Of a stretch of 64,000 bases of DNA, positions 410-62,696 are shown in pieces. The first letter of the stretch is position 1, and the number at the start of each line of letters is the position of its first letter. Origin of the DNA: Morchella semilibera (lineage: Eukaryota > Ascomycota > Pezizomycetes > Pezizales > Morchellaceae); the NCBI GenBank assembly GCA_009192285.1, contig WBVU01000010.1, forward strand, positions 1,610,111-1,674,110, written 5' to 3'. Under the pieces are notes generated by a model, which saw only the letters and a list, made by a program, of their open reading frames with translations, had not been told where the DNA came from and did no database searches. The translations under genes and the position numbers were made by a program.

Positions 410-1727
410 AGATGAGTTGTTGGCAAACCATGTGCGTGTGAAGAGTAGTTAGTCTAGCTGTATTAGAAATATTCCCTAGTAGTATACAGTGGATTTCTTT
501 TGGAATTAGCGCTACGCTATCTATATGTAGTTCTAAATAATACTGTCCCTAAATTATACAATCTCGCATATATATCAAGTCCTCTCTTTCCCACTCCATG
601 GGCAGTACACCTAGGGAAAGGTGTACTACTTAACTAACAATAGCCGTCGTGTACTTGGAATTCCCATGTGCCCCTTGATAGGCATTTACATAAATGGTGC
701 CAAGAAAGACACAGGCTACCTACATGTAGTCTAGTGAACTCCGGTGGTATCGCTCACGATATAACCAATGAGTTTCTGGACATTCAACGCTTTATACCGC
801 CCAATGATAACTTATAGAGCCAGCTCGGGCTGAAGCTAGTCATATCCTTGCGCATGGAAAGCGTGGGCATGCCGGCAAGTTATCAAGGGATGGTTCCGGC
901 CCGATGTTTTTGAGCTATCAAGGTGCTAGATGTAGGTATCCGGCTACCACCATTACACACGCCCCCACCACACACCCCCACCCCCACCCTCCCCCCTAGC
1001 TACCCCCACCTACCTCCTTATATTCGCATCTTACGCTGCTAGAGCGGCCAAGCAGTTATATTTACCACGTCTGGTATCCATCCATGGTCTTCTATCACCC
1101 AATACAGCAGTCTCATCTACTCACCTCAGCTAAGGCACTCACCAATAAGTCGTTATTAATTATACCAATAGGTCCGGTAAGTGTGATGCCACAGATCAAA
1201 CTTGGCGCATATATCAATCGAGACCAAGTCTCACCTCAAATACGTGTATAACATATACGGGATTATACATGCGCACGCGGGATGACGGTGGGACATACAT
1301 GTAGAGTAGTCGCAAACTTATATGTGGTTCTATTGGGAATCACGAGTGATCTCTCATGATGCGCTGAGTACCAACACTATATCAACCAACCATTACATGG
1401 ACTCTTTGCCAAGCCGCAAGCGGCTGAGGAAATACATAATACCAGACAGCAGATTCCGGTTTTTGGAGTGTGATTAATTCAATTGAGGCACCGTACCCGT
1501 CCAAAGAGTATCACCAGATTAAAGAGAACTTCTCTACAGGTTAGAACTGGCATAGGTTCCTGTAGGTCCTGGGGATAGTGTTTCCCTGATAGAAGCTTCT
1601 ATTATGTGAGTCTACTTTGATACATGTATTCACAAGACATTCTAACAGGCCGATACTAAAAGGAATATATAATCCTTGACTAGTGCTCGGGATTAGTTCT
1701 TTCGCAGCTCCTATTGGAGTAGGTTTA
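410..1727. other. intergenic spacer between two convergent 3' ends
   Basis: No coding region is recognised. It holds a C-rich tract near 955-1015 and three copies of the palindrome TACATGTA (721, 1296, 1621). The gene on the left ends at 409 and the one on the right ends (minus strand) at 1728, so no promoter is expected here. Confidence 0.5.
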
Positions 1728-3898
1728 CTAAACAATGTGCACATCTAGAACAGCGCTCATTCCACCCTTCACTACTTCAACTGCCTCCACAAGTAACTTC
1801 TCCATTTCTTCAATGTTATGGGCAGTTCCTGCCCAAACCTGACCGCCTGCCGCTGCTTTTGCAATCCCGGCCTGTTGATATTATTGTTAGTGCTGCCCTC
1901 CCCTAAATCTAGGAAGTATTCCTGGAAACATACATAATCTGGCGAAGGCCTAAAAGAAATGTTCAATTCTTCATTGGTTGCGTGAGCTGCATACCCATCG
2001 GGGTGTACGAGCTTTGCAGATCGCAGGGGAGCGTGCCAACCGTCATTGTTCAGCACAATGGTCAGGAAAGGAATGTTGTAGCGGCGGGAAATCCAATATA
2101 CCGATGCTGGTACAGCAAAGAGGAAAGTTCCGTCACCAACAACGGCGACAACAAATTTGCCAGAGTTGTCTTTGCTGCTATCGAGCCCCAGCTTTGCCCC
2201 AATTGCTGCACCTCCAAACCACCCGACTGTTTCACTGGGTCAGCTCCGTTCATTTAAGTCCAAAGTAAGAAATAACTTACGACCGCCTGCGCCCGAGCCC
2301 AAGAAGCTACCCGGTTCTACACACTGCAGCTGATTTGCCACGGCTACTGTTTGGGTGACAGCTTCTAGGAGTACAACTGCGTCCTTAGGCATGATATCTC
2401 TCATACGCTTTGCCATATACGCCGCCGAAACCATGCCATCCTCTCTGGGCTTTGCAAGTTCTACAAATTCATCCATCCGCTTCTTATGTTCATTTTCCAA
2501 TGTTTTTAACCGGGATGCTGCATCTATTTGTTGGAGCTTCGAAGAGCTTGAGATTCGAGCATTGATCTGCTTCAAGGCAGTAGAGGCGTCAGCTCTGTAT
2601 CTAGCATGCGCATTAATATAAAACACCGGCATTTGCTGCTTCAACGGATCGATATCAATGTGATAAATTTTTGCTGTAGACGAGGGTTTGCATCTTTGTT
2701 CACAGGTCAGTATGATTCTCCCATATTTTAGGGTAGAAGTGGAGACCATACTGAGTTGGGATCCAAGGCACGTCGCAATCAATGACTAATATCATGTCTG
2801 ATGTTCTGATACGTTCGTGTACGCCGTACCCAAGACCTAAAGAAGATACATGGTTTGCAGGGAAACACATATCGCTACCAAGAGTGTCAAGAACTCTTAC
2901 TCCTGGTAAAACATCTGCGAGTTTCACTAGCTCTTTTACAGCCTCGTGATTACGCCCAGAATATCCTGTCAATACTAGCGGCTCTTTTGCTGTGAGAAAG
3001 GCTTCCGCAATGGTTTCTATGGCGTCTTCTGGAAGAGCAGAAGGCATGATGGGGTCCCAGACGCTCTGATCAAGGTGATATGGCTCGATATCTTCCTCCA
3101 GTACCTCCCGAGCTGCAGTAAGGTATACAGGGCCCTTTGGGTCAGACATAGCAAATGAGAGGGCACGGTTGATCATCTGCTTTATGTTTTTCCCTGTCTT
3201 AATCTCGGCTGTGTATCGGCAATACTGTGCAACGATTGCACGTTGATCTGGTACATCCTGGATGTAATGGATAAATTCGGTTCGGCTGCCACGCATTTCC
3301 CCTTCTTGAGTGAATGGGGATAGACCAGCAAATATCAAAACGGGAATGCGACCACAGGAAGCATTGTGAACAGCAGCACCAAGACCTAGACTGTAAGCTT
3401 TAGCTATTATGATATAAGAAGGAATGGTTTAAGACCTTGTGTGCCAACATCCACATGGACAATGACGCATTGTGGCTTTCCAGTAACTTGGGCAAAACCA
3501 TGAGCTGCTGAAAGAGCTACCATCTACTCAAAGAGAACGTAATATTAATCAAAAATCCTTAAAAAGCTCATAGATGTCTATATGTAAAGGCTGCAATTCT
3601 CGGTTTCTTACCTCATTTGGGCATGTAATTATCTTAGGGAATCTATCTGGAGTCTCTCTTTGGCCCTTGACCATTGCTTCCAAGATACCTGGGGCACAAT
3701 TAAATCCAATTGGCCTCCCACGCTGAAGTAGGCCATTACTTACTTGGATGATCAGAACCCAGGTTGACAAAGCAATGGGAGATCCCCGCTTCCCAGAGAG
3801 CTTCGAAGAAGGCAAATGAAGCGGTGTACCTAGAGTAGTTGAAGGATATCTGTAAGCATTATGTTTATAGCCCTCATGAAAGAGATCAATGCTTACAT
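1728..3898 (-). CDS. thiamine diphosphate-dependent enzyme (acetolactate synthase / benzoylformate decarboxylase superfamily)
   Basis: Eight exons on the minus strand: 3897-3898, 3744-3829, 3612-3688, 3436-3523, 2752-3385, 2281-2693, 1934-2226, 1728-1871. They encode 578 aa, the usual length for a ThDP decarboxylase/carboligase. The N-terminal PYR domain carries the catalytic glutamate in TCPNE (about residue 53), then VDVGTQGLG. The C-terminal PP domain has the GDG...NN cofactor motif (VVGDGTFLF ... VLNNDGW). All junctions keep phase. The start is unusual: exon 1 supplies AT and exon 2 begins with G, giving M-YTASFAFFEALW. No in-frame ATG exists between an upstream stop and the TASF block, so an upstream exon is required. 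The substrate cannot be told; fungal members of this branch are usually called acetolactate-synthase-like but are not the biosynthetic Ilv2 type. No targeting peptide is seen. Confidence 0.85.
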
Positions 3899-5147
3899 GA
3901 CTGATAGATATAGTTTGGGCAGCTATGAGGGGAGATTGTGATAATTATCAAAAAGAGTATCCAAAGGTTGCGGGGGAGGAGCTTTATAAGTGATGTTCAT
4001 GAAAGTAAATCATGGGCCGCGCATAACCGAGACATATGCGTATGTACTACAAGAATAGAGTACATGTATGTAGGTGGCAGCTAGCGTGCCCTCAACGCCA
4101 ATCAAATGCAAGTGCGGCTTTATCAGCTTGACTATCTAGATAAACCTTAGCCCAGAAATAGTGTGCTTGTATTGAGGTGCCGAAAAGTCTCTGGATCATA
4201 CAATCGAATCTGGCGGTGACAATTAGCTTTGAGGATAGGCTGGAGCTATACTGTAGAGTATGTTGTACTTAAAGTACATGTAAGTACTGTTGTTGCAACA
4301 ACACTTACCCCAGTATGCACATTGTTGAACTCAACATCGAAATCGTGGACCCCACACATAAAAGAAAGATGGAAACACAAGGGAACAAATTTGTACCTGC
4401 ATCTAGAGAGGGAAATCACGCTTAATACTGTAGAGTATTAGTTCTTGCAGAATCAGTTAAACTTGGTGATAAATCTGATAAATCCCAAGACATTATTTGT
4501 CCAGCCCTATATATGTAATCCTCCTATGGATTTCTAACACGTGACCTAAAGACTTCTTAGCGCCTCGTACTCTATTATAGTCTTTCTAAGGAGATGACTA
4601 TACCAAATATAGCTTGTTGCGGCTAAATACTAAGCACTCATCGCTACAACATGTACATGTAGGTACTAGGTACATGATACATGATACATGTCTATACATG
4701 TATCTTTGTTACTTTACCTACATGGTCATCTCCACTATACCATCTTTGAAATTCAAATAGTTACCTGCTTTCCCATTGAGGATGGTTACAAGCGATTAAA
4801 AAAAAGGAACGGCCAGAGTCTCTACCAATACAATAGTTACCAATAAGCAAATAAAACACCCGACCGGATCGCTTTTTCAAATAAGATCAATTCTCCCCCC
4901 CCCACTCCCCCAGGCACGCATTTACTCCCGTCACCTAATACCGACAACAGCAATAGCCTCCAATCAACTACTATTTAAACTGAGGGAGAAAGAAAAAAAT
5001 GTGGGTAGTAAGAATAAAAAGCTATTATTCCAATGATTGTTTCCTCCAAATCCAAAACCATTTAGAGTCCCTTCAATACAAATTTAAAACCCCTGGGCAT
5101 TCAGTGACTCTTCTGTGAAACATGACAACGCTAGAGGATAAACGATC
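3899..5147. other. intergenic spacer upstream of the ThDP enzyme and downstream of HSE1
   Basis: No convincing coding region; the short open frame around 4229-4441 has no recognisable motif. The stretch holds four TACATGTA copies (4061, 4275, 4654, 4695) and a tandem run of tacatgata/tacatg units at 4650-4705. Pyrimidine- and A-rich tracts lie at 4797-4920. It should contain the promoter of the ThDP enzyme (left end) and the 3' UTR of HSE1 (right end). Confidence 0.5.
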
Positions 5148-7620
<2,473 letters not shown>

Positions 7621-8574
7621 GTTGCTCAGCGCAGCTCCTGTAGTAGATGTATTATTTGCGGAGATGACGGAGGTTGGACGTTCGTGTTTTGTGTTTCGGA
7701 GAGGTATATTTAGTTAACAGGTGTGCTGCGAAGAATATAAAAAAAGAGGTATTTCCTATGAGAAGAGGATGGAGGAAAGGAGGGGTGTGTGGGATGTCAT
7801 AAAAACGGCGACTAGGTAGGTTTATCGACATGCGTAATGCCCAGGCGCCTCTTGCTCTTGGTTGTGGCTGTGGAGGCAACATGCAATCCTACTAGCGGGG
7901 TTGCAGCAACCACACTAAATTATCAACAGATTTGTATTGTTGCCTTCACAGCTTCTCTTTGTGCACGCGGCTCTGGCTCATCTGCGGTGACGACGCAACG
8001 AAACCTGTTCACAAATAAGAATGGGTGAAACCACAATCATGTCTCTAGGTAAATAAAAATATTTAAAGTAATTGAGTAGACGAGTTAACCATTACTGTAC
8101 CATGCCATCTTCGGGAAGCCCTCCCGCTATCACCTCTTTTTTTTTGGGGGGGGTCAATTAAAAGCTGAACCTTCACAAACATTTCCGTTCCAAACCCCAC
8201 AGACAAAAAGAAAAAGAAAGAAAAAAGACTAAACTGATCATGAGGGGAATACAGCAGAGAAAGAAAAAAAACTCGTGGCCGTTAGTCAAAAAGTAGTAAA
8301 TCCACCTAAGATAAAAACATTTCACTCCTTCTCCAAAAAAAGTAGGAAGAAAGAAAGAAGGGGAGAAAGGGAGAAACGAGAAAAAACGAAAAACTATTCC
8401 GTGGCCAAAATAAAATAGGAAAAAAAAAGTACATTATCCCATACCACAAGATTCTATAAAATCAATCCCGCTTCAAATGCATCATGACACTCGTCGTATT
8501 GACCCCTCCGCTGTTAACCCGACTATTCTCGCGTTACACCTCCGATTATTGAGAGTTTCTGTACAACTTTAATA
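7621..8574. other. intergenic spacer: HSE1 promoter side and STE20 3' region
   Basis: No gene recognised. The left part is the presumed HSE1 promoter and 5' UTR. The part at about 8130-8430 is very A-rich on the plus strand with a T9/G8 run at 8140-8155; it corresponds to DNA 3' of STE20, which ends at 8575. Open frames at 7652-8028 lack any motif. Confidence 0.5.
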
Positions 8575-11487
<2,913 letters not shown>

Positions 11488-14400
11488 GGCTAGTTCGAAT
11501 GACAGGGCCAACGAGAGCTCAGAACGGCCCCCAACGGATGGTATTACGGGGTTTTTCTTAACTGATTGACCTAGCTAGATGCTTGTATGAACTATGTGAG
11601 GGGATTTGGAGGGGGGGTTTGCAACGGAATAAATTGCGAGTGGGCAGGCAAAGAGAAGTGAGCGAGCGAGGGTCCGGGAGGGGAGAGCCTTGGGCAACAA
11701 ACAGCAACAGGGTGCGCTGGAGAGTCGGTATGGTACTGTATGTAATAGGTAGATAGTATGGATGGATGGATATGGCTAGGTGAGCATATGTAGTAGCATG
11801 TACATGTAGTTGGATGGAGGTGGTTAGGTGGGGTGGGAGGCAGGCAGGCAGTAAGAGGTTGAAGCCGAGAATTGAATATGGGGAATTGATTTATTTCTTG
11901 AATTAGAGGAATGATTATTTACTGAGACCCTTAAAGTTAACTAATTGAACTTGGATTAGGAGTTTTTCTTCAATTCTTGGGTGTGGGTTTTGAACTGGGA
12001 TCTATGCGATCGAGAAATTAGAGGATCGCAGCTTCTCTCTTCTCGCGACAGAGTCGGACAAATTTTTTTGTTTTGGGAGATGAAGGATCTGTGAAATATG
12101 ACTGCCGAATCCCTTAATTCCTTTCTTATTTCTACTTATTTCTGACTTCTCATTTCTTAGTAATTAATTATTGATACACGTAGAGCACTCGACCTGGATA
12201 ACATTGTTTTTTTAATTACTACTACATGTAAGTATGTACTTATTGTGTGTTCCTTACTCTCCCCACACACTCTCTCAATCCCTCCTCCTCTTTCCTTCCA
12301 TCGTTCCTCTCTTCTCTCGGTATCCATTCTCTCAATTCTTTCCTAAGTGTTGTCCAAACCCTCCACTTTACTGCAGTACAAACAACAAAGTTAGAGTGTC
12401 GTATGTAGGACGAGTCCCATACTCTGAAACCCAGCTAAAATCGGGCACATGTAGGGCACATGTATGTACAGAAGCTCTTCATAGGTAACGTAATCTCGCC
12501 ATGGCATAATTGCAGATACAAATGTGTTCTCAGTCAATTCAACCCGTGCAGTCAATTCTGGGCTGGACTACTGTATAAATGCCGTGATGTGCTTGTTCAG
12601 CAATAATCATCGCTGCAGAACCTAGGAAAAAGGAAAGGCAGGGGACTGCAGATGGGAGAAAGGCCCAGAGCTGTAAGACCACCGCAGAAGCTTCATTCTT
12701 GCACCGAAACAAGCGGGAAGATGGACGACAAAATCTGCAAACCTCCATTTTGCATGTTTCGCGGGTTGCATTAACATAAGACCCACAAGTTAGCCCCCCA
12801 TCCTTCTCGTTCATATGAGGTCGAACTGTAGCAACTACCAATTGACCTTCCTGTTGCGTGTTATATTTGGAGTAAGTAACTGCACCGAGGATCCTGCCAT
12901 TACTGCTACTACTTACCACTCTGGAGAAAGTGCCGAAAATATCAATGGTATTTTATTCAACATGTCCTTATTTCGTTTTTACAGTCCTTTGCCTTGTTTG
13001 CTATGTGGCGTAACATAATCTAATAGGAGACAAGAAGCACGCTGTCGTCCAAAGCACACGTGGGCATGATCCAGAGCTGAACCTTTAAAAACTTGAGAGA
13101 CATTCTTTGACCAGCAAACACGCCAAGTCTCACACACAACAACAACAACATCGGTACTAACCTACGAGTCTACATGTAGGTACATACTTGTAGGGATTCA
13201 AACTTAGAACAGCAGAGCAACCGAACATTCTTTGGAATATCCCGGTTGCCTGGGATGGGGAGCAAAGCGTTCCAACTTCCAACCTTCTAGTAGGTATGCC
13301 AAAACCCATGTCGCTACATGGGTGTATATTCTCTGCTACCACCCCCCCACACCCCCATTTTAAAGCATCCGTGCCTAGATATCCGGATTATCACTCTTTC
13401 ATAGGCAATGAGCAGTTGAGGGGGGCTAAATTATAGCCACCCTCATCATCACCATAATAGCTATCGCGTTGGAAAAGGAGGAGAGCCCCGCACCTGACCC
13501 TTCATTTCGTTTATCTGGGGGTTGTCTCGCTCTTTATCGACGACGTCGCCGCCTTCGCTTGACGCCGGTCTCTTGTGCAATGAGCTTATTCTTGCTTGTG
13601 ACCATGCTGGGCTTCTTTTACTGGCAGAGAGAGGCAGTGCTCCTGTTGGCTTGAACGCAGGCACTCTACATCAGTGCAGTAGTGACCACGCAAATTGTCC
13701 CGCGGTGGGAAGGGGAGCCTTCCTTGTGTGTGCAGTTAGTTAGTTACGGGTTACGTGACAGAGCGTACCGATACTATATATGTGGCTAATACCATAATGG
13801 TGGTAACAAGACGCGCCGGACACGCGTCTTTCCTTTGAAAATCTTTCCTTATTCAACTGCCATTCACCGATTTGAATCGGTGACAGCTGAACTCTCCCCA
13901 AGTCTCCGATTAATTCCGCCCAGCGGCCCGTTATATCGGAAGTGGATCCTGCCTGGAACAGATATGTGTTCCAGGGACACTCCGAAGCCCATATATTTTT
14001 CTTGGCAATATGCACATATCATGGATTAACGTCACGTCACGCTGCTAAGCAAAGCATATATACATGTACATTCCGAGACGCAGTACACGAACCTACATGT
14101 AGTACTTGCTGACCGGCCGGCACCTACGAACTCTTTGCCTACATCTCAATTAGGAATCTACAATATGTTCCTATTGTAGACTCTAGCGGGCGTGAGTTCA
14201 AGTCACAGGATATCACTCGGATATAAACATCTGCTACAACAGTCGCTTGGTCAAGATTTAACTAGATGTCACAACCATCGTTACAGGTGGATACAGAGCT
14301 TATTAGAATTAATTACCCCATAATCTTAAAATTTCCCCTGGGTTACCTAGATTGGTTTTTAGTGCCGTGCAAATGCCTCGGGCCTCAGCGCGGGTCCTAT

Positions 14401-16918
14401 AAGATGACGGCCTGCACTCTGGGCCTTTTGCCATTCTCCTCAAACCCTTAATATCAAACAATCCCTGCGTATTCTTACACCCATAGGCATGGTATTCTGT
14501 AAGTAATAAGTACTAGAGCACACATGCACAGTGAACATTTTATTTGACGATCTATTATTATTAGCTACTTGCATGAAAGGAAATATGGCTGGCCATCAGG
14601 GCCGAGGGGACACTGTGTTTTTTATGTCAATTACATGATGGTGCATATCTACCTTCATTATATTTTCTAAGTACTTAGCGACAAACATTTCAAGCTCTTA
14701 CCAGCGGGGGACATGGGGTCAGCTTCTGGTACCACGCATAACAAGCTTGAATTGGATTGAGGAGCATAAACCAGCAAGTATACTAGGTTTAGTCTTAGGT
14801 TCAGATATAATATGGAGTTCAATTACGGTGGATGTGGCTGATAATTGGGCCGGTGATTATGGGGCTAAGAAGCCTCCCTCTATGGAAGCTTTCTCTCCCC
14901 TACAAGAAAGTACCTTGATACGGAAGCTTGGCCAATTAACCGTTTTACATTTATTACGTATAGAGTACTACATCTACATATAGTTCTTGCATACGAATAC
15001 TAACGTATATACTACAATTAGATTATTAGTAGGAACATGTCTATTTCTTGGCTACACCATATTCTCTGGATCTAGAAATCGAAATATTGGGAGAGAGATA
15101 TTTATTCATTTATGGACGGTCCAGGGCAATCCTTAGTAAAGAGATACTTATTTAGGGACCTACATGTACTTAACTATATATAATAGAAGTCGCCATGTAA
15201 GGTTGAGCCTGAAAATATTGATGAATGGTTGGTTACACTGATATAATGCATCACGTTTTTTTATATATATACACTTCAATTAAGATCCCACCTTCCTGAC
15301 CCCAGAAACCCTATGCACGCACACGTCTAGTGTATTTGACGGGCTTCCATCTGTTGTCATAATTACGGGAGAGTAGATAATGTCGTGGTAGCTGTACATG
15401 TATTTACAATGTATTTTATCCGCGGATGGGTTGGCTATTCCGATCATGCCACACACAACCCATTACTAGTGTGATGAGGTTGCATATATGTGCATGGGTT
15501 CAAAGAGCCTTCTTTGCGAGCATATCATTTACACCACATATATGTCCAACCAACATACTCTTAAGAACCAGATTCCGCTCAAAAAAAAAAAAAAAAAAAC
15601 CAACTCAAGATAAGCCTAACTAGGATAACCGCACTAGGACCAGTGACGGACCGGACCGTCTTTGGGGGCTTTGCCTGACAAGGTAAAGCTTTAATGGCGG
15701 CGGATAGGTACAGGGTTAGGTGAACCCTTTTTTTTCTTCCCCCCACCTCCTCTCCCCACATGATATGACGCTGCACCCTTCTAGGCAAAGCTTCCACGAG
15801 ATGGCGAACTACAGAAGTTCTGGTAAGTGATCTGATACTTGCATAATTGGCAGATATGCACGAAGTAAGTGTGTGTGCTCCACTCGTATTATATATATCG
15901 ACTTTCGCAGTCCTTTACTTGTATATATGAGAGTTTATTTAGGGGGGCTTTCCTTCTGCATGTGTGAAACAGGTGGTAGGATGGACAAGCGAGCATCAAT
16001 CATACCACTAAGTACATGTAGCAAGTAGCATACATGTACGGAATGGAGCGGAGTAGAGTTACATATGTAGCTGGGTGTGGTGGGTGTTGGACGACTAGCG
16101 AACTCTAGATCTGGTGCCTGGATTTCAATTGTGCCGGGGAGGGGGGTTCTATTCGTCTGTTCGTTATGTGCATCAATGATCCCCAAGCAAGGATTCCCCC
16201 ATCCCCCCCCCCCCCCGGGGATCGATCCGAGTTCTTTTGAGACAGCATTCTTCTTCGAAGCTTCCACAGGAGCTTCGAGAAGAAAAAAATATGGCAGGGG
16301 GTGGGGGTTCTAGCTTTCGGCTTTTTTTTAATGGCGCAACTTACACACGCAAAGTCTCCGAGATGCAGACGTCGCAAACAATCTGTGTGAGATTCACCGG
16401 AAGCCCTATCTCTCTCAGTTTGGGGGGGTGGGGGGGTTGAATATCACTCACTCTGAGTACTCACTCGGACCAGGGAGTTAGTGCTTGGCCGTCATATCTA
16501 ATCACTCGATACAGATCTTTTGAGATCGCGCCTGCACCAGAGTTAAAAGCACTCACTCTAAAAGGAGATCTCCACGATGAGACACCCTTTTTTTTTTTTT
16601 TTCCCTTCTCCAAATAAGCTTTTTCCCTTCTTCTGTGCTTCTCTCCACAGCACAACACAGCACAGCACAGCACACAGCACACAGCACACACGTGACCTTC
16701 CATGTATCTCGAACACCGGAGAGGAGGGGGCTCAGGCTTGTGGCGAGTGCGACGCACCCCCTTGGCGCCCCTCCGACTAGCTACAGCTACAAGCTGTAGT
16801 TAGCGCCCAGCCACAATCTCATCTCAGTCACTTCCCTCCAACGTCAACTTCCTTTTCCTTGATTTCTTCCCACTCTCCCACCCGCAAACTACTCTATTTT
16901 ACCCCACGCAAAAAAAGA
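11488..16918. other. long gene-poor spacer
   Basis: About 5.4 kb with no gene I can support. Many short open frames exist (for example 12539-12919 on minus), but none shows a motif or plausible splicing. The left end is the presumed STE20 promoter. The spacer holds nine TACATGTA copies (11801, 12223, 13171, 14061, 14094, 15161, 15395, 16013, 16031), the densest part of the window. It also holds CA/CAA repeats near 13130, a small hairpin at 14155-14180, an A18 run at 15580-15599, C- and G-runs at 16200 and 16424, and a CACAG-type repeat at 16650-16690. The last 300 bp is pyrimidine-rich and probably the SFT1 promoter. Confidence 0.45.
16650..16692 (+). repeat. CACAG/ACAGCACAC short tandem repeat
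   Basis: Direct reading shows consecutive cacag and acagcac units just upstream of the SFT1-like gene. It is a simple-sequence tract with no assigned role. Confidence 0.7.
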
Positions 16919-19286: not shown

Positions 19287-20046
19287 TGTTGATGGGGGAA
19301 GTATCTGGGGCGTGAACGGAGATGATAGGGGGGGGGGGATGGGGGAAGCTTATGGGGGGTGTAAGTGAGAGGGGGGTGAATGAGAGAGAGAGAGCCCCAC
19401 TACTTTACATGAGTTTTCTTGGCAGCAACACAGCAGTAACAAGCTTGCGAGCTCTATGAAGTACGTACACAACTCGATCAAAGCTCGTTTCATAATATTT
19501 TGACTGTTTCCTCCAGGCAATATAGTATAATATGTAGCTGCGTGTAGTTTTATAGATGTTAAACCAGCTAGGACCTTCTTTTTCTCTCTCTCCTTTGGCC
19601 TGGTGTTGACTACAGGACGTAATGTATAATACATGTAATATTCGCAGCTGATCATGATTATTTGATTGATCCGTTTTTTACTCATGAAGCCATCAGCTTA
19701 AGATGTATTGTGAGAAACCTCTGCAGTTGATATTCTGTATAGTGGTAGTAGCATGTACGAGTACATATGTAAATAAATAATACAGAAGGAACGCGTGATA
19801 TTCTGTGACTGAGAACCTCATGCTAATGCCAATGATATAAAAGCCAATGATAATGGCAACCCCCCTCCCCCCCCCAATACGCCTGATGATAGTTTTTACA
19901 GCTGCCGTGAAAGTAAAGCAAGAGAAGAGGAAAATAAAGAAGCAAAAAATAAGCAAATAAATAAAAAATAAGAAAAGATATATATACATATATACACCCC
20001 AAGAGCAAGAAAACAAGTAAAAAAAAAAAAAGAAAAGAAACCCACC
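19287..20046. other. spacer between CAP1 promoter and the 3' end of the disordered protein gene
   Basis: No gene recognised. It contains G-runs (19329-19338), a GA-rich tract (19366-19392), one TACATGTA at 19630, and an A-rich stretch at 19917-20040. The CAP1 promoter must lie at its left end. Confidence 0.5.
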
Positions 20047-28046: not shown

Positions 28047-31000
28047 TTATTCAACAATTCCAGCGGCAATAGTTTGCCCGCCGCTTCGCAATACCACCCT
28101 GTAACCCGATTCCAGTGGGATCGAGTTACCCATAAGCTCTACCTTCACAGTCGCTAGAGATCCGGCAGTAATATGCCTTGGCTTCTTCTTTAAGACAACA
28201 CCGGTTGCTTTATCCAGTGTTGCAAGTAGATAAACAATTTTTCCTGGCGCGTGAAGTCGTCCTCTGTGGACATCAACCATCATAGGCGTGAGGCCTTCGA
28301 ATGCAAGTATTTTTATCGTAAATGAAGCTTTGGGTGTGACACGGTTTGTTGGATCGCAGAGGATATCCCCCTCCCTGCGGAAACTGTTAGAATAAATTCA
28401 TACAAGCAAATATATGTATTATGACGATACCTTAAATGCACCATATCAATATTAGATAGGTGGAGGATGACATTGTGGCCAGCAACCGCCCAAACAGTAG
28501 GCTCTTCATCAACCTCAACTGCCTTTATAATTCCACTTTCGCCGCTGGGTACGGCAATAATATTATCTCCAACTTGAAGACTTCCGGCTTCTATTCGGCC
28601 GGAAATGGAAACTGGGTTCATGATTCCACCTTTGAAAACATCCGAGATTGTGAGCCGCAACGGTTTTTCGATCGCGCGTGTTAACGGCTTCGTTTTTTCT
28701 GTTTACATGTAATGCGATCAGCATAATGATTTCACAGTTGGGATCAAGAGTGGATCTTCTACCAAGTTCTTCTACTAAGGTTGGCCCCGAGTACCAAGGG
28801 ATGAGACCGGATTCCGGTTTCTTCACAATGTTTCCACCTGTTAATCCACTACAGGGTATGAAGCTGATGTTTTTTGACGCAAATCCGGCCTGTGTAAGGA
28901 ATTGTGTCATCTGCTGCTCAATCTCTTCGAACCGCCCATGAGACCACTCGATTGAATCAAGTTTGTTTACGGCTACAATTATCCGTTGCACCCCCATGCT
29001 TCTGACGAGTAGTGTATGTTCCTTGGTTTGCCCTTTTAGATGAAATCCAGCCTCAAAGGCCCCTGTTGAAGAATCAATCACAAGCACTGCAAAGTCGGCT
29101 TGAGATGCACCAGCAATCATATTTGGGATAAAGTCGCGATGACCTGGGGCGTCTAAAATCGTGAATCGAGCCTTTTCGGTTTCAAATTTGTTTACGGCAA
29201 TATCCATTGTGACCCCCCTGACAGGAAACCAAAGTTAGCGTTCAATATAATTCAGGATATCAAGCTACGATACCTGCTTCGTTCCTCTTCTGTTTGGTCC
29301 AGCACCCAAGCGAGCGCAAAAGATGATTTTCCGATCTTCTCTGCCTCCTGTTTGAACTTTTCAACCGTTCGTTGATCTACTACACCGGTGTCTAAAAGAA
29401 GTCTCCCCATGAGAGTACTCTTCCCAGCATCAACGTGTCCTACAATAGGATAAATGTAAGTGATTCCATTCTCAGCTCCATGGACGAATATTGCAAACCT
29501 ATCACTACGAAGTTTGCATTTTCTTTCGCGGTTGAATTTTTGTATTCTTGGAGAACATCGATCTTTTTTCGTTGTTTCACTGGTGTACTATCGATATTCA
29601 CTGCTTGTAGAGCTGTTTCGACTTTCTTGAGTGCTTTGGCGTCTGCCACGGCTTTTGGGTCATTCTTGGAAACTGCTTTCCCGTTCAAGCCTGAGGGTAA
29701 TATCTATATGTTAGGCCAACCTTAGATGATACCCGTTGAATTTCCAGAACATAATTTATTACCTTTACTCGAACTTTGCGCGGCAACAACCACATCGTCT
29801 GGGCTTGGCCCAGAAAAGGCACTTGTGGGGGCTCCTGGTAACGAGAATATGCGTCTGTCAGTTATTTCAATCTCATACGCAGATGAAAGTCTATCCCCAA
29901 ACATAGACAGTGCAAATTTTGATGGCCCAGCTCTTAAATCTAAAGCAGGAACAGAACCCTCTTGTTCCTGGGCAGGGAAAGACCGCTCTTCTGGCTCTTT
30001 TCTTGCCGATTGGTCAAGGCTCTGGCAAGGCTGATGTACGGGGCTCGGTACGAGTGGTCGTGGTGGTGGTGAAGCGGTAATATTTGGATTTTCGAAGGGA
30101 TTTGTTAGCTGGACATCGATCTCCGCTGTTACTGAAGAAGTTGTCGCTTTAACAGGTGAAGATGATTGCTTTGCCGAGAGGCGTGACAACATAGACACCG
30201 CGGAGCTTTTTTCTCCATCGGAGGATTTTTGCTGAAACTTTTTTTGGGCGTCCGCTTTTTCCTTTCTAGCTTTGGCCAAGGCTGCAAGTTTCGAGATCTT
30301 TCCCCCAGATGGTCCGCCCGAACCTCCAAGGAGTCCACCGGGAGGGTTTATAGGTTGGACAAAGATAGATCCCTTTCGATCTTCCGGAATCATCCCCCAT
30401 GGTGCATCCGCGAAAAGCCCATAAGCCATCGCAGAGAGTTTGGGCGCCTCGTAATCTCCGAAAAAGCCTTGACCTTGACCAATCCCTTAGATGAGCTCTG
30501 AGCATCCTGTACAATCAGTGTAGGAGTGATGTACCGCTTGCAGATGGTACCTTAACGAGGAAGTTGGGCTGGAGGTAGGCAAATTGTAAACAGAAAAGTT
30601 AAACTACCTTTGCTGGCTTGAGGCTTTTTCTTTTTGGTAGATTTCCCGTGTTGGTCTATTCAAGCTGTCAGTAATCTTTCATTTCAGTAGGGCGAGAGAT
30701 GGATTACTCAGGATATAATTAACGGTCTTTTCGACATCGAAAAAATAGTACCACAAAGACTCCTGAATTTCCCTGTCTGTTGCTATGTCACTACCGAGTA
30801 TCTCTCTTACTTTCCGTAGGCCCACGTTTAATTGATCTATTACGCGCGCATTTTTTTTTATTGAGCTATTAGCGATGCGCACCTCCCTGGCAAGAGAGTT
30901 TAAGAAAGAAAGAGCTGTAATACGTTTATCGCTGTCACTCATTTCTGTTTTGATACTACGTTAGAAGTTTCGCAAGAGTTGAGCATTTGTTAGGTACATA

Positions 31001-44238: not shown

Positions 44239-44985
44239 AATTACTTGTGTAGATAGAGATAGGTATAGGACGAGAATGATGATTGGGGGTGGGCAGCTCC
44301 TTGTTGTTTATTATATATCCTACGAGTAGAATGGTGATTGATACTATGGTTTTGCAATAGCGGTGGTGATGCAACGCGTCGGGTGCCTTAAAGTACGGTT
44401 GCGGGGTTATGTTAAATCATCTTGCTAATGGAGGGGCTCCCGATTCTGTTTACCCGGCCTGAAAGGTACATGTATGTAGATTGCCATTAATTCTAGGTAC
44501 AGACTATGGCATACATTTCCTACAAGTATAAGGGTCCGACGCAGTAAATTTGATACATGTATGTTGCGGGCCTGCGTCTCTGTCATCTTATTCCAAACCC
44601 TAACCCTACAATGCCCTTCCTTCAAATGATCATTTGGAAGCCTTTGCACAAAATAGCTAGATCTGGATACCGGCCAATCAACAAATATATATGTATGTAC
44701 CTGCATGACATCATTTTATAACCGCCTGTCAGATTATATTTAGGCGGCTGTGCTCTTTTTGTTTGTTTGTTTGTTTGTTTGCGGCTCTGGTATCACCAAT
44801 ATTTCTTCTGCACAGTTTATTAAGTGAACCCCTTCCACTTTCCGTACGAAATTTTCCAAGATCTGATATCGGCCATTCATTAGCAGCATAAAAATGCATA
44901 AGTAGCGCCTGCCTGATTAATACTGCCGCGATCCTGTTATTATCGAAGAAACAAATAATAAAAACGTCCAAATCAATATATCAGT
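44239..44985. other. spacer between the RG-rich gene start and the BSD gene stop
   Basis: No gene. It contains two TACATGTA copies (44467, 44554), a double telomere-like ccctaaccctac at 44588-44600, and a (TTTG)n tract at 44758-44781. The RG-rich gene's promoter lies at the left end. Confidence 0.5.
44758..44781 (+). repeat. (TTTG)n microsatellite
   Basis: Six consecutive gttt units read directly in non-coding DNA. Confidence 0.8.
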
Positions 44986-46542: not shown

Positions 46543-47395
46543 GACAAGAGCCAAGTATTTTTCCTCGGTGATGTTCTCGTAGGTGGTGAGGCGCTGATTG
46601 TTATCAGAAACCTAGCTCGAGGGGTAGTTACTGATTGGTATTAGCGTCACATGTCTGTAGTCAAACCTACATGTAAAGTACATAGTCTGCTGCAACAACC
46701 ATCCACACTGCCAGTGTCACAATGTACCTAAGCCGAGGCCATTGAGACTCCCCTTCATGTAATTGTTCTACCCGTCTATTATCCCTAACTATTATACCTA
46801 TTAGACTCACTTATGGGGGTATATCCCACTCGAACTCGACGTTGCCACCAGTTACGCCCATAAATGCCTATCACTGACTAGTGTTGTAACATTAGAAACC
46901 TTAGGCCAACCATCACTTTTGGTCAAATACGGTATCGTGAAAAACTTCCGGATTAAATCGGAGTTTCAACCATTATACCATAGCAATGCTGTAGCAATAC
47001 CGCTTTCCTGGTACATACTGTAGCTGCAGGGTTCTTTCTACTAGGCCGGCAAACAGCACTTCTCAAAAGTGATGCTTGGCCTAAAGTCTCCAACAATTTA
47101 AAGCAGCGAGAACAAGCATAACACATACGTGCATACATGTATTACCGTGCTGCAATAACCAGTGATTTTTAAACTAATAGTGAGTAACATCAGAAATTGA
47201 TTACAAAGAAAAGAAAAAACAAAGAAGAAAAAGAAAAACTTAGTACATAGCTCTTCCTCGACTACCTCATATCTCATCTTGACTACCAATATCATATCAA
47301 TCATTTCCATCTGCCATCACGTCTATATGCTGCGAAACACACTAATGAACAATTATTGCAACTAATTTTCCCTACAAACATTCTCATAAAAACAT
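46543..47395. other. spacer between the BSD gene promoter and AGE2 3' end
   Basis: No gene. Two TACATGTA copies (46668, 47134). An A-rich stretch at 47205-47245 and a minus-strand frame at 47098-47310 are not convincing as coding. Confidence 0.5.
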
Positions 47396-51562: not shown

Positions 51563-51665
51563 TACTTGTTATCCACCATAGGAACCTGAAAATGCAGGTG
51601 CCAATATTTGTATGGGGCCAAGGCAATTCCCCATACAAATTATCCCTGAGGTGGATAGCGAGTAC
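51563..51665. mobile_element. nested palindromic element
   Basis: A perfect 12-bp stem, ATTTGTATGGGG (51606-51617) with CCCCATACAAAT (51629-51640), has an 11-nt loop. It sits inside an imperfect outer pair, TACTTGTTATCCACC with GGTGGATAGCGAGTA. The left arm carries a 20-bp insertion that is itself a small hairpin (cctgaaaatgcagg). It resembles a small foldback transposon remnant; no coding capacity. Confidence 0.5.
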
Positions 51666-51783
51666 ATGTATCTTCAAGCCCTGTCGAATTGTCATACCAA
51701 GTTGTAACACCAGTATTACGGTTTTAATTCAACTAAGGTCTTCCTGGTGCAGGGTTAGGGTTGTATATTCTGGAGCTTGCGAT

Positions 51784-52729: not shown

Positions 52730-53717
52730 TTATAAAGTACCACTTTCCTTGAATACGAGATGCTGTTCGTAGAAACTAAGCATCTATAGAAGAATAAGTC
52801 AGAAACCATACTTTTTATGAGACTTTCGGGAACTGTGTTATCAATTACCTTCTGGGGGCACTTTGTGTAGACATACTGGATGGGATGCTGTGTTTTCTTC
52901 CCGTCGGCCCTATAATAAGTGATCAGTAAGGTGTTTGTTTCAGTGCATGCTTCACCTGATGATCAAGTCGGTACCAATGAGGGGGCACTACCAGTGAACA
53001 TAGCAAATTAGACCCTTGCCTGTCTTTTCGATGGTGTCAATGGTGGCATCCTCGTCCCAGTTCTTCTTAACGTCTACGGGTGCTGGAGAGGTATCATCCC
53101 CATTTGACTTTGAAGAAGAGGCGCCAAAAGATGTCCTAGCGCGCTTAGTGTTCTTGGGCGCCGCTGAAACTGGGGCTGAAGCACCACCAGCGGGCTGTCG
53201 TCCACGCTTTGGAACTGAGATGGCGCGAAACACTGGGCGGCCACCGATCTTGTCATAGTACTCCTGCAAGATTTCCTTTGCTCCCCTGTTCGGTAATCGA
53301 CCGTCAGTGTTTAGTCCCCCAAATGGCAGGATGGGGGGATAAGCCTACTCGCAATTCTCCTCAGGCTCCCAGGTCATGTCGCTTTTCTTTTCGTATCCCT
53401 TCCACTTAACATGAAGATACAATTTCTATATAGCGGCCATGAACCACTCATCCGTCAGCAAAGATACCTGAGGACCAGCCAAACCAATATCCTTCCCCCC
53501 GACAATCTCGACGTACCTTGCCTTCGAACTTGTGGTCTTTAATGGCCTCTACGATAAATTCTTCCCCATCTTCATCAACAGCATCCTCATCATCATCCTG
53601 CTCCTCTACTAAATCATCTTCAACGTCATCATCATCCACGGGCATAGCCTTCCTCGAGTTTCTGGCAGGGATCAGATCGCCGTCTGATTCAGACTCAGAC
53701 AGTACTTGGGGAGGCAT
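52730..53717 (-). CDS. heterochromatin protein 1 (chromodomain / chromoshadow domain)
   Basis: Five exons: 53517-53717, 53349-53425, 52992-53285, 52849-52909, 52730-52783; 228 aa. HP1 binds H3K9-methylated nucleosomes and dimerises through its shadow domain. An acidic N-terminus (DDDDVEDDLVEEQDDDEDA) precedes the chromodomain at about 48-110 (EEFIVEAIKDHKFEGKK, LHVKWKGYEKKSDMTWEPEE, NCEGAKEILQEYYDKIGG). A basic, Ser-rich hinge follows. The chromoshadow domain is at about 165-225 (GLICYVHWADGKKTQHPIQ, CPQKMLSFYEQHL). The last intron was chosen because it restores the canonical FYExHL end. The first ATG in frame starts MPPQVLSESE. Confidence 0.94.
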
Positions 53718-58200: not shown

Positions 58201-61090
58201 AGCTGGAAATCGAATCCAGGGAGTTATCGTTGTCAAAGTAAGCTGCCAAGCGTTCAAAAAGACTCTCAGGATTGTTCGAGGACTTTAATCCCTCCCCCAA
58301 GGCCTTCAAATCTTCCATGATCTTTAATGCTTTATCCCTGATTTCCACGCTCTCATCTTTATCATGTGCTTCCATGAACGCTACGGCCCTCCCCACGATC
58401 CATTGCTGCCTGTCCGTAGTGGTGCCGGTTGGAATATGCCTTGAGGATGAGGATGACCTTGAGCTCACTGGAGACGAGCTCATACGCTCCTCGCTGTCCC
58501 TAGAATCATCCGACTTCCTATCATCATCACTCCCATGAAGTTCCTTATCCATAGTTGATCGTTCTGTCTTCTTAGAGGCAATTTTAGATATTTCAGCAAA
58601 AACACCCTCCCGGTAGAAATGATATGTGTAAATCTCTGGGAGACGTCGGAGGAGTAGCTCAGCAGCTTGGAAAGCAGCGGTGACTAGAGTTTCATTATCC
58701 TGCTGCGATAGTATGGATGCTAAGTGTGATGCAAATTGGACACTTGATAAAGCTTCTTTAAGAATTTCCGCATCCAAGTTACATATCATCTTTAGCTGGG
58801 CTGTAAGAACTTTCCTTCGAACATCGAAATTGACAGTACTTGAGTAAGCGTCTGTGAGTGTTGGGAGAAGGATTGTTGCAAAACGCTTCAGCTCATCTTT
58901 ACAGCTGCTTAACAGTCGACGCCTTTTTTCGTCGGGGTCCTCCTCTTCTTCCTCATCTTCATCCGATGGATCCTTTGAGGGCCTTGATCCATCAGGGATG
59001 TCGAATAAGCCACCGTGTTCCTCGCCTTTTAGTAAAGTTAGTAAAGAGGCCTAGAGCTAGATGACTACTGAACTTACCATGGGGTAGTCCGGGTAATAAC
59101 TCGCAGATGACGTTCAAAGTCTCAAAAACTTGCTCCCTTGGCCTATGGATAAGGGCTTGCATAGTCATTACAGTATCATTCTTCATAGCTGCTCCATCAT
59201 GATGATCGGAGGGGGGCGAAACTCCGGTCAAAATCTGGAAAAGCGTATCAACAATGTTCATTTTTAACATATCCATAGATAACGTCGGACTGGCCTTTGC
59301 GACTATCCCTAGAACACGCAGAAACTGAGTGTGAATATGAGGCCCAACAAGGTTTGTTGTGCCCGGCAGAAGTAGTTGTAAGATGGCTTTCATCATATCT
59401 CTTGACATAAGTTGTTCTAGCTTGTCCGGATAATGACGGAAGCTGTCCACAATACGGGCTACGCACAGGCACGCATGTTCAACAACTTTCTGGTCGCTGC
59501 TGTTTAAGACATTTAAGAGAGTTGGCATGACATCCCTAACTGTGGGAAAGCAGTCATCTGGGATATTCCGACAACAGTTTGCTGCTGTTGTGACCGCTGT
59601 CCTCTGAACATTTGTCGCAAAGAAATCCAAATAAGTCAGACATGCCACCAAACCGCCTTCTCTGACTATTGATGTTGGATACTCGACAGATATTTTCTCA
59701 AGCGTCTGGGTAGTGACAATCGTTAGTAGATTCCACAAAGTTCCCTCGTATAACTATGTGACCACATACGCTCAGGGCCTGTTCGGCCAAATCAATGTAC
59801 TGAATTTCCATCAATTTCCTGCAAAGTACTGGAACAGCGCCACCGTATACTACATTAGCTGTTGCCGCCGGCAATGCCTCCATTAGATTTGCAATGCATC
59901 GACATGCAAGTAGCATCATATCAGGATTTTCGCCAAATGGCCCCTGGTCTTCCATTAAACTGACAAGCTCTTTAACAAACTGGTCCGGCGAAAAATGACC
60001 CGATAGGTTATCTTCGGTAGACACGAGCAGAATTTCTGCCAGCTCCTGTAGTGCAATCAGCTGGGCTGAGGGATCATCTTTCTGTCTAAGGTTGGCGAGA
60101 ATATCTCGAAGCCGTGAAGAAATCCCGGAAACCATTCCTGAGAGAGCTCTAAGGGTATTGGAAATCCCACTTGAGTTGTGGACACCACCGAGGTAACTTC
60201 CTTCAAAGACATCTTCGTCATCTTCATCATGCTCATAATCATCCTCATCTCTATCATGTTCATCATCCTCCCCAGGTCCCGCATCACCCATTTCTTCGTC
60301 GTGATCCTCATCAATATCAAAGTTATCATCTTCATCTTCCTCGTCGTCATCGTCATCCTCTTCTTCGACATCATTTGGCTCACTCATTCGAACATCCGCA
60401 TCACTTAAATCGTTGTGCATTCTTCGTGAGGCTCGGCGGGAGGAAGCGGTAGAAGAAGCGATGGCAGTATTGCTGTTGGTGGCAGTGGCGGTGTTATCTA
60501 TTTAATGCTTAGCCAATCAACCCTCGAGATGTAAGGGTATTGATGGGGGAAGGTTCAAATGGAACTTAGAGGGAATCCAAACCCCTTGTCGATTTTTTAC
60601 TCCGACTTGACCTACGTTTATGTGTTGATGATGAAACATCCGGTGTCTGTACTGGAACGCTAGGTTCTACGGGCATATTGCTACCCTATTGTTAGCCCCG
60701 AAGTCTACTTGTTTTAGGTTCAAACCCTTCTGACGTAACTTACCTTTCCTCTGGCGTGTCCATGACTTGATTTTTTGCGCTAACAGTCTTCTTCCCCTTA
60801 CCCTTTTGTCGGCTTGAGGGCTGGTTTTCTTGATGTTTTGGAGGTGTATCTGCAGAAGAGGAAGCCTTAGGGCGCTTTCGGCCGCGAGTGCCGAAGGAAG
60901 GTTCAGGTTCTTCCGTTATCTGACCAGAGGAAACTTTCCGTTTACGATTTGGCTTTGACGAGGAAGGTGTTGAAGTTGTAATAGATGGTGGTGCGGGTGA
61001 AGCAGTGGCGGGGAAGATGCTACTAGTTGACGAGACGGCCTGATCTGAGGATTGTCTCGTCGATGAACGAGTGACTCTGCGAGGAGGCAT
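55256..61090 (-). CDS. UFD4: HECT-type ubiquitin ligase Ufd4 (TRIP12 homologue)
   Basis: Eight exons: 60744-61090, 60583-60680, 59770-60497, 59078-59705, 58141-59025, 55719-58094, 55510-55659, 55256-55452; 1802 aa. Ufd4 ubiquitinates ubiquitin-fusion and N-degron substrates. A basic Ser-rich N-terminus ([13 protein letters not shown]) leads to a long Asp/Glu tract (60190-60380). Armadillo-like repeats follow ([39 protein letters not shown]). A second acidic insert precedes the mid-region. The HECT domain occupies the last 350 residues ([38 protein letters not shown]). The catalytic Cys is in [17 protein letters not shown]. All seven introns keep phase. A longer N-terminus through an upstream exon is possible (see findings). 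Confidence 0.95.
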
Positions 61091-62696
61091 GAACAAGTGT
61101 CCTTTTTTTTTTTTTTGCGTGCGTGTGTGTGATTTTCTCTCTTGCGATTGGGAGAGGAGAAAGACCAAGAGATTATAACGCAAAGGTAAAAAATGATGAA
61201 GGTGGATGAGCGGATGGAAGAGAGACTCAGAAAGTAAAAAATAAAAAATAAAAGAGATGGTGAATAACTACCTTCGTAGGAGAGGCGTGTTACTAGTGTC
61301 GGAGATTGTGGGGGATAGTGGATGATCAGCGGGTGAGGAAGCGGATGAGGCTGAAGAGCTTGTAAAGACGGCGGAGGTTGGCCTGAGATCAGCAACAGAT
61401 GCTCTTCCAGATGCTTGATGCTTGCGTGATCTAAGCTCCATACGATGCCGCCATCCACGGAGGGATCAGTGGGAGTAAGGCGAGCAGATATCAGGAAGCA
61501 GGTGAGGAGGCCGAGGAGAAGAAGCACCCAGGAACCTGCGAATGGCGGGGCGTCTGTTTCTGCTGTTGGGGCTTGGACCGTGAGGGGATTTTCCTGTATG
61601 CAGGAAACTTGTTAATACTATCCTTCCTTTCCCTTGTTATTCAAAATTCTTCTATCTATGTAGTATGTATCAGTTGTTGTCGGCCGGGTTGCGAAGCTCG
61701 GAGGGGCGGGCTGTTCGCTGTCATGAATATGTGGGTGTTGAGGCGAGCCGAGTGTCAAGCGTAGGATTGAGCGGGCAAGGTGATGATTCAGTTACACACA
61801 TAAATACTAGTACCTAGCCCTCATTTGCCTAGCGTGGTCCTTTAGGGCTCAAGAGCCCTCTGATACATGCAACCAAAATCGATTCAGCACAGAGTATCTA
61901 CATTTTTTGTACACGTACGTAAGTACATATCGTCCTTTAGAGATCTTAGTCGATAAGATAGCGTCGCCAGTGATATCTGTTAGTACACACATGCCTCCAC
62001 AATTCCAGTACCATGAAAAAATGATGCTATAGAGACTATCGATTCTTAGCGATGTTGATGTGAATACAAGGTTTCGATAGATACATGTATTTTTGATAAC
62101 CCGATAACCTTTCAACCCCTCCTTAACCCCACCATAACTACATGTACATGTGCAATAGATCCTTGCAAATCCGCACGCATGAGTACCTCCGACATTAGTC
62201 TTGGTCTATACGTAAAAAGCTTCATCCGAAAGGTTTGTTCTATCAGTTCTATCAAGAATGCCCAAATAGCGAAAGTATTAAAGCGAGTGATCCGCAGCCT
62301 AGTTTGCAAAGGAGAAATAGCCAACACGTTTAACATGAGTTACTATAAACCCTGATATCGAGAGAGAAATCAACTGTCTAGAGGGAAACAAATGCAGCCC
62401 CAAGAAACCCTTCACGAAAATACCCGACGTTTGAAAGGAAAATAGGAAAACAGCTCCAACAAGAACAACCCTTGAGAAGAAAGCTCCATATAATTTCTGC
62501 CGGTACGCCCCCATCACCCAAATTCCGAACGACAAACCCGCTTAGATGAGCTCGGATATTTATGAAACAAAAGCGAGAAAGAAAAGGAAAGATAAACCGT
62601 TTATCGGGAGAAGCCCCTAGTTAGACCATGCCTTTTCCCGATAAACACAGAGTATTTTGGAATATCGCAGATTATATGTGGGCAGAGAATCTACAA
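61091..62696. other. UFD4 upstream region and SDR 3' flank
   Basis: A T14 run (61102-61116) lies just upstream of the UFD4 ATG. A candidate alternative first exon is at 61272-61441 (minus). Two TACATGTA copies (62082, 62139). No other gene; minus-strand frames at 61849-62535 show no motif. The right end is the presumed 3' UTR of the SDR. Confidence 0.5.

What the first reader, a model, noticed from the sequence alone, without database searches (positions are those of the whole stretch)
721..62146. TACATGTA palindrome is strongly over-represented and avoids coding exons
By eye I find 25 exact copies of this 8-bp palindrome. With roughly 54% A+T, about one to two are expected in 64 kb, so enrichment is of order 15-20 fold (my rough estimate). 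None falls in the exons of the 20 protein genes, one is intronic, and copies cluster (4654/4695, 14061/14094, 16013/16031, 44467/44554, 62082/62139). The enrichment is not explained by simple repeats, since flanks differ. It could be a binding site for a chromatin or replication protein, a methylation or meiotic motif, or a mutational product. I know of no described fungal motif of this form.
Basis: seen in the sequence. Interest (0 to 1): 0.8.

Follow-up and report, generated by a model that had tools for sequence, protein, structure and literature searches.

The report
Genome-wide intergenic palindrome in a fungus
The 8-letter palindrome TACATGTA recurs about 22,000 times, almost always outside coding sequence, in this fungal genome, roughly 25 to 30 times more often than chance, and it looks like a landing site for an abundant, unidentified DNA-binding protein.

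Summary
All 25 copies are there (0.76 expected), and the window is ordinary for its genome: 22,206 copies in 56.76 Mb, or 25.0 per 64 kb, against 3,723 for the reversed palindrome. In sampled DNA the word is 26-fold enriched outside coding calls (87 vs 3.4) and near chance inside them (2 vs 0.7). So exons are not 'avoided'; they lack the enrichment, which also fades near genes. The site is wider than 8 bp: 36% of copies read AnnTACATGTAnnT. Copies cluster, and neighbours prefer a 2-bp spacer of varied sequence, a 10-bp register (19 of 94). Flanks are not palindromic, which argues against hairpin growth. I found no abundant transposon to have left 22,000 Tc1-type scars, though scars are not excluded. 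Best reading: a hyper-abundant site for an unknown dimeric DNA-binding protein, probably regulatory, with neighbouring dimers on one face of DNA. The same word is a known, very abundant promoter motif in Phytophthora; I saw no fungal report in the searches made. The organism is probably a morel (inference).

The parts
721..728 (.). TACATGTA copy 1, intergenic by rough gene calls
1296..1303 (.). TACATGTA copy 2, intergenic
1621..1628 (.). TACATGTA copy 3, intergenic
4061..4068 (.). TACATGTA copy 4, 0.7 kb upstream of a minus-strand coding call (2307-3320), followed by TGTA
4275..4282 (.). TACATGTA copy 5, same intergenic cluster
4654..4661 (.). TACATGTA copy 6, same cluster; TACATG words lie between it and copy 7
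4695..4702 (.). TACATGTA copy 7, same cluster
11801..11808 (.). TACATGTA copy 8, 0.35 kb upstream of the p21-activated-kinase-like gene (coding call 9288-11452, minus)
12223..12230 (.). TACATGTA copy 9, upstream region of the kinase gene
13171..13178 (.). TACATGTA copy 10, upstream region of the kinase gene, flank GGTACA
14061..14068 (.). TACATGTA copy 11, upstream region of the kinase gene
14094..14101 (.). TACATGTA copy 12, upstream region of the kinase gene
15161..15168 (.). TACATGTA copy 13, same long intergenic stretch
15395..15402 (.). TACATGTA copy 14, same long intergenic stretch
16013..16020 (.). TACATGTA copy 15, paired with copy 16 (10 bp between them)
16031..16038 (.). TACATGTA copy 16, paired with copy 15
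19630..19637 (.). TACATGTA copy 17, intergenic
28704..28711 (.). TACATGTA copy 18, at the edge of a called exon (intron or gene edge; unresolved)
44467..44474 (.). TACATGTA copy 19, intergenic, followed by TGTA
44554..44561 (.). TACATGTA copy 20, intergenic
46668..46675 (.). TACATGTA copy 21, intergenic
47134..47141 (.). TACATGTA copy 22, intergenic
51663..51670 (.). TACATGTA copy 23, intergenic
62082..62089 (.). TACATGTA copy 24, between divergent coding calls
62139..62146 (.). TACATGTA copy 25, between divergent coding calls

Best explanation
TACATGTA is the core of a hyper-abundant cis element: 22,206 copies genome-wide, and 0.55 per kb of sampled non-coding DNA more than 300 bp from genes (shown by count). 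It is most likely bound by an unidentified homodimeric DNA-binding protein, one subunit per TACA/TGTA half (inferred from exact dyad symmetry with flanks that vary independently on each side). Weaker base preferences extend the site to about AnnTACATGTAnnT (shown). A second copy is preferred at a 10-bp centre-to-centre register with varied dinucleotides as spacer (shown in the pairs listed), so dimers probably sit side by side on one face of the helix and bind cooperatively (inferred). Copies form local clusters with related half-site words around them (shown), lie outside coding DNA, thin out within about 300 bp of coding ends, and lean to promoter-side intergenic DNA (weakly shown). The role is most likely general transcriptional or chromatin organisation, like a general regulatory factor site, rather than control of one pathway (inferred from number and spread).
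For: Count and sharpness: 22,206 vs 3,723 control; 28-fold for the exact word in 254 kb; the 12 one-mismatch classes 1.1 to 3.4-fold except TATATGTA 6.2; 87 vs 3.4 non-coding, 2 vs 0.66 coding. Extended site: T at +3 in 60%; left and right flanks independent: matching pairs at positions 1 to 4 are 28, 20, 38, 24 of 84 against 23.7, 22.4, 35.3, 28.0 expected; 8,039 of 22,206 read AnnTACATGTAnnT. Register: 2,666 pairs with a spacer of 0-30 bp; 129 for the reversed word; spacer 2 in 19 of 94 pairs, spacers 1 and 3 in 2 each; nine different dinucleotides; the 94 come from the first 100 rows listed, all on contig C1. Clusters. Location: 1 copy in 11.6 kb within 300 bp 5' of coding calls where 6.3 are expected; 2 in 12.7 kb on the 3' side where 6.9 are expected; divergent 10 in 10.6 kb, tandem 30 in 47.1 kb, convergent 5 in 16.6 kb. 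Precedent: the same palindrome is a very abundant upstream motif in Phytophthora, and its authors call it suggestive of a homodimeric factor site.
Against: No binder was identified: the one TALE homeodomain found has the WFINARRR recognition helix, not the Irx-type WFANARRR (recalled). The promoter-side bias is weak: divergent vs convergent P = 0.028 with coding calls of 500 nt or more, 0.085 at 300 nt, and at 800 nt the divergent class has 0 copies in 2.8 kb. The gene calls come from a home-made dicodon finder. Copies lie far from starts (5' median 1.6 kb vs 1.1 kb background), unlike a core promoter element. The +3 preference and the 2-bp spacing are also what a TA-targeting transposon with TAnnTA preference would leave. 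The reversed control ACATNNATGT is about as common as TGTANNTACA (5,992 vs 6,112 genome-wide; 35 vs 29 in the sample, 13 vs 17 away from TACATGTA), so half-site spacing is not orientation-specific evidence. One-mismatch copies partly keep the flanking context, as neutral decay would also give. Density does not track local coding fraction (Spearman -0.12, P = 0.52). An order-4 Markov model cuts the non-coding excess to 4.5-fold.
Confidence: 0.55

Rival explanations
1. Excision scars of a Tc1/mariner-type transposon: the element inserts at TA, duplicates it, and on leaving deposits two bases of each end (CA and TG), turning TA into TACATGTA. Thousands of past excisions would give the copies, and selection would clear them from exons and near genes.
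For: PMC3520976 itself notes that taCATGta is a Tc1 excision footprint in C. elegans. The genome has 96 DDE_1 transposase matches, and two copies of one element have ends TA-CAGG...CCTG-TA. AnnTAnnT flanks resemble Tc1-type target preference (recalled). TACATA/TATGTA, expected as shorter scars, are enriched 2.6-fold and carry some of the same flank context.
Against: Only 8 matches to that element's end in the whole genome at up to 2 mismatches, and no abundant inverted-repeat family with CA ends in 318 kb (6 pairs). Other element families were not searched genome-wide. Few copies in the four gene-poor loci (6 in 36.8 kb non-coding), where scars should survive best. PMC3520976 rejects it for Phytophthora on grounds of conservation and abundance.
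Confidence: 0.22
2. Microsatellite or hairpin by-product: TACATGTA is the point where (TACA)n meets (TGTA)n and grows by slippage or cruciform repair.
For: TACATACA, ACATACAT and TACATATA are enriched 6 to 9-fold; TGTA is the commonest 4-mer after the palindrome, 16 of 174 flanks; all these words alternate pyrimidine and purine.
Against: Palindromy stops at 8 bp: outer flanks are no more complementary than chance. Removing sites next to TG, CA or TA leaves T at +3 in 54% of 94 flanks, each remaining site read from both sides. Spacers of 2 bp between paired copies are of nine kinds. In one search only poly-A has a higher z-score than TACATGTA.
Confidence: 0.13
3. A lineage-specific compositional or mutational bias favours this word without any binding protein or transposon.
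For: Words with TAC and GTA are generally raised near the sites.
Against: The exact 8-mer is 28-fold enriched while most one-base changes are 1 to 3-fold; order-3 Markov still leaves 13-fold; coding DNA shows no comparable excess (2 vs 0.66).
Confidence: 0.1

Closest known systems
Phytophthora motif-1 / M93 (PMC3520976, PMC3597505; passages read)
   Same: Identical word TACATGTA, palindromic, among the most abundant upstream motifs (12,070 Phytophthora genes; 4,150 times in P. infestans promoters); binder unknown in the passages read.
   Different: Oomycete, not fungus. There it was defined in promoters and tied to expression; the 10-bp register and AnnTACATGTAnnT extension do not appear in the passages I read. 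A sister motif there, TACCGGTA (M94), has 0 copies in the non-coding sample.
Tc1 excision footprint of C. elegans (noted in PMC3520976)
   Same: TA-CA-TG-TA is exactly the letters such a scar has.
   Different: The paper calls it a rare footprint of Tc1; here there are 22,206 copies and no abundant matching element was found.
Irx (TALE) homeodomain sites (PMC3520976 passage)
   Same: Preferred site reported as TACATGTA.
   Different: The single TALE homeodomain found here has isoleucine, not alanine, at the specificity position (residue rule recalled).
NACC1-type BEN domain sites (PMC11472053 passages)
   Same: CATG-core palindrome; the crystal was grown with a TTTACATGTAA oligo.
   Different: No BEN domain found in this genome, although the tool warns that this does not show absence.
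p53-type response elements (recalled)
   Same: CATG-centred decamers abutting at 10-bp centre-to-centre distance.
   Different: Outer bases are TA/TA rather than RRR/YYY; no p53 search was run. A CP2 domain, recalled as a related fold, is present on two paired contigs, which by itself says little.

Membership tests
Hyper-abundant homodimer-type cis element (as Phytophthora motif-1/M93) | Identical palindromic consensus, far above background | tested here: met
Hyper-abundant homodimer-type cis element (as Phytophthora motif-1/M93) | Located upstream of genes | tested here: inconclusive
   divergent > tandem > convergent but weak and dependent on the length cut-off, and copies stay away from the first 300 bp
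Hyper-abundant homodimer-type cis element (as Phytophthora motif-1/M93) | Conserved at orthologous promoters; correlated with expression | not testable with these tools
   no related fungal genome or expression data held
Tc1/mariner excision footprints | Letters TA + 2 bases of each end + TA | tested here: met
   sequence itself; element with TA-CAGG ends
Tc1/mariner excision footprints | A source element (or its MITEs) common enough to make them | tested here: not met
   8 ends of the one candidate within 2 mismatches genome-wide; 6 CA-type inverted-repeat pairs in 318 kb. An extinct or unsearched source is not excluded.
Tc1/mariner excision footprints | 6-bp insertion relative to an empty TA site | not testable with these tools
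   the paired contigs sampled differ by 1 mismatch in about 10 kb; no diverged relative held
Microsatellite or hairpin junction | Palindromy or repeat extends into the flanks | tested here: not met
   flank complementarity at chance; varied spacers. TGTA does follow in 16 of 174 flanks.
Irx-type TALE homeodomain target | A50-type TALE homeodomain in the genome | tested here: inconclusive
   one TALE hit, I50 type; domains split by introns may be missed
NACC1-type BEN target | BEN-domain protein in the genome | tested here: inconclusive
   none found, but nothing rang in the controls either

The most novel reading that the evidence does not exclude
A filamentous fungus runs a genome-wide array system: an unknown dimeric architectural protein occupies some 22,000 mostly intergenic TACATGTA sites, stacking dimers every 10 bp on one face of DNA, as an insulator or general regulatory factor unlike the known yeast ones; Phytophthora evolved the same word independently.
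Probability: 0.25. Interest if true: 0.78.

Novelty: new member of a known kind. Interest (0 to 1): 0.57.

Why it matters
If it is a protein site, the genome carries about two copies per gene (22,206 copies; 11,269 genes in M. sextelata, if this is a similar genome), so the binder would be a major, uncharacterised regulator or chromatin organiser. The site's sharpness makes the protein straightforward to pull down. If instead it is a transposon scar, the genome would hold a very large record of past excisions. The same word being hyper-abundant in oomycetes and in a fungus makes convergence itself a question.

Tried and rejected
Hairpin or microsatellite origin: weakened by independent flanks and varied spacers. 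Restriction of the feature to this window: rejected, since the window equals the genome mean. Polyadenylation element: no 3' bias (33 nearest to 3' ends vs 46 to 5' ends, background 9,936 vs 9,373). AT-rich nucleosome-free signature: GC is about flat beyond 20 bp. BEN and TALE candidates: no support. Rows for words written with brackets are wrong (my script used the length of the pattern text); I dropped them and recounted. TGTANNTACA as orientation evidence: dropped because the reversed control is about as common. rRNA search for identification: not answered twice and dropped. Structure prediction was not used. Samples differ by call: searches use 254 kb including L027, the near-duplicate of L026; searches use 244 kb without it; searches use the 24 unique loci (294 kb, window included); one search adds L028-L034 (318 kb).
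Full report
What was checked. All 25 TACATGTA copies lie at the coordinates given; 100 dinucleotide shuffles average 0.76 and never exceed 4. Among the 256 8-bp palindromes of the window it is first with 25, the next being TATATATA with 7. The whole genome, 56,756,124 bp in 23 contigs with the window at C9:1610111-1674110, holds 22,206 copies against 3,723 of the reversed word ATGTACAT, itself a palindrome of the same composition. That is 25.0 per 64 kb: the window is average, and the finding belongs to the genome, not to this locus. The total includes contig pairs that look duplicated (C9/C10, C12/C13, C21/C22), so independent sites are somewhat fewer.

Where it lies. I drew 19 stretches of 10 kb, later five more, and called coding DNA with a dicodon Viterbi script. 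These calls are rough. In 178,194 bp called non-coding there are 87 copies against 3.4 (order-1 Markov), 6.7 (order-3) or 19.5 (order-4, which already holds much of the word); in 115,805 bp called coding there are 2 against 0.66. Coding DNA is thus at about chance level, not below it. Within 300 bp 5' of coding calls there is 1 copy where 6.3 are expected from the density elsewhere (P = 0.013); within 300 bp on the 3' side, 2 where 6.9 are expected (P = 0.031). Density per kb is 0.95 in divergent, 0.64 in tandem and 0.30 in convergent intergenic DNA with coding calls of 500 nt or more (divergent vs convergent P = 0.028, but 0.085 at 300 nt; at 800 nt the divergent class has 0 copies in 2.8 kb). 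The four loci with under 15% coding hold 6 copies in 36.8 kb non-coding, but there is no overall trend with coding fraction (rho -0.12, P = 0.52). In the window nine copies lie in the 6.7 kb between the p21-activated-kinase-like gene and the next coding call of 300 nt or more, on the kinase's upstream side.

What the site is. One-base variants of the core are enriched only 1.1 to 3.4-fold, except TATATGTA at 6.2, against 28-fold for the exact word. Outside the core T is at +3 in 60% and A at +4 in 48%, mirrored on the left, and the two sides vary independently (base tables). Genome-wide 8,039 of 22,206 copies (36%) read AnnTACATGTAnnT. In the sample the figure is 62 of 166 (both strands counted), against 7.5% for generic 8-mers and 44 of 314 (14%) for the one-mismatch variants. 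So some variants share the context, as either decay or tolerated binding would give.

How copies relate to each other. There are 2,666 pairs with spacers of 0 to 30 bp, against 129 for the reversed word. Of the first 100 rows listed, all on contig C1, I used 94: a spacer of 2 bp occurs 19 times, spacers of 1 and 3 bp twice each, and the dinucleotide between is of nine kinds. Centre-to-centre this is 10 bp, about one helical turn. Of the 99 spacings among the first 100 places, 20 are 100 bp or less where a random scatter gives 4.5. Words such as CCTACA, ATGTAG, AGTACA and TACATA are raised 2 to 3-fold within 100 bp of copies. Against over-reading this: TGTANNTACA (6,112 genome-wide, against 1,568 with a 3-bp gap) is matched by its reversed control ACATNNATGT (5,992; in the sample 13 vs 17 away from TACATGTA), so half-site orientation is not proven.

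Mechanism. I commit to a binding site for an abundant homodimer that can occupy neighbouring sites one helical turn apart (0.55). Shown: number, sharpness, extended context, register in the listed pairs, clustering, non-coding confinement in the sample. Inferred: the protein, its dimeric state, cooperativity, and a regulatory or chromatin role. The main rival is Tc1/mariner excision scars. It explains the letters TA-CA-TG-TA, the AnnTAnnT flanks and even the 10-bp pairs (two scars at TAnnTA). Against it: the genome has 96 DDE_1 matches and an element with the right ends, but only 8 such ends genome-wide at up to 2 mismatches, and no common CA-ended inverted-repeat family in 318 kb. A diverged relative would settle it; none is held.

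Organism. 49 Zn2Cys6 matches (that the family is fungal is recalled) and a BiP ATPase region that scores higher against the chain named 78 kDa glucose-regulated protein homolog (501 bits; that this is yeast Kar2 is recalled) than against BiP chains of similar length (479) point to a fungus. An internal array on C1 has the unit TAGTTAGGGT, which is a rotation of the reverse complement of AACCCTAACT, the telomeric repeat reported for Morchella sextelata, a genome of 54.64 Mb, 47.38% GC and 11,269 genes (PMC13208314; passages read). With 56.8 Mb and similar GC in the sample, a morel or close relative is my inference; it was not proven.

Prior knowledge. Eight of my ten searches of the held library bear on this motif (two searches asked other things). 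One search listed 40 of 290 papers holding the word; one search listed 15 that also hold 'motif' and 'fungi'; searches found none. I opened passages of five papers holding the word: in two (PMC3349750, PMC8081344) it was part of a primer. I saw no fungal report of the motif, but most of the 290 were not opened. For Phytophthora it is described twice (PMC3520976, PMC3597505; passages read), as an abundant inverted repeat upstream of 12,070 genes in three species and 4,150 times in P. infestans promoters. The first paper discusses both the Irx homeodomain and the Tc1 footprint. NACC1 BEN was crystallised on a TACATGTA-bearing oligo (PMC11472053; passages read). None of these binders is supported here: one TALE homeodomain of I50 type, no BEN found (not proof), one CP2 match on each of two paired contigs.

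Noticed in passing
window 1343, 9131, 14212, 16501, 22191, 23764, 36378, 36958, 38493, 39320, 43466, 54134, 62284; 51 copies in 18 of 24 sampled loci (window included): A second widespread element, ATCACTCG, 45 non-coding copies against 4.5 by order-3 Markov; 6 of 51 overlap coding calls. In 32 of 51 it is preceded by TCAYR-N4 at exactly that spacing (0 at N3 or N5), a direct repeat of TCAY with a 10-bp period. Possibly another general regulatory factor site.
   Followed up: partly
L038:5219-5412 (C1 near 4,005,219): Internal array of 19 copies of a 10-bp telomere-type unit, TAGTTAGGGT; AGGGTTAG words also occur in 12 other sampled loci.
   Followed up: partly
contigs C9/C10, C12/C13, C21/C22: Contig pairs with matching content at matching positions; one sampled pair differs by 1 mismatch and 29 gap openings in about 10 kb: near-identical haplotypes, duplicated chromosomes or assembly duplicates.
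   Followed up: partly
whole sample: Runs of A/T and of C/G are strongly over-represented (AAAAAAAA 345 vs 19, CCCCCCCC 171 vs 12 in 254 kb).
   Followed up: no
L017:4516-6400: Tandem array of diverged repeats with a period near 99 bp inside a long coding call, perhaps a repeat protein.
   Followed up: no
L028, L029 (C2 and C11): Two copies of a transposon of about 2.1-2.2 kb with ends TA-CAGGAGAAGCT and a DDE_1 domain; in L028 it sits inside a longer inverted arrangement.
   Followed up: partly
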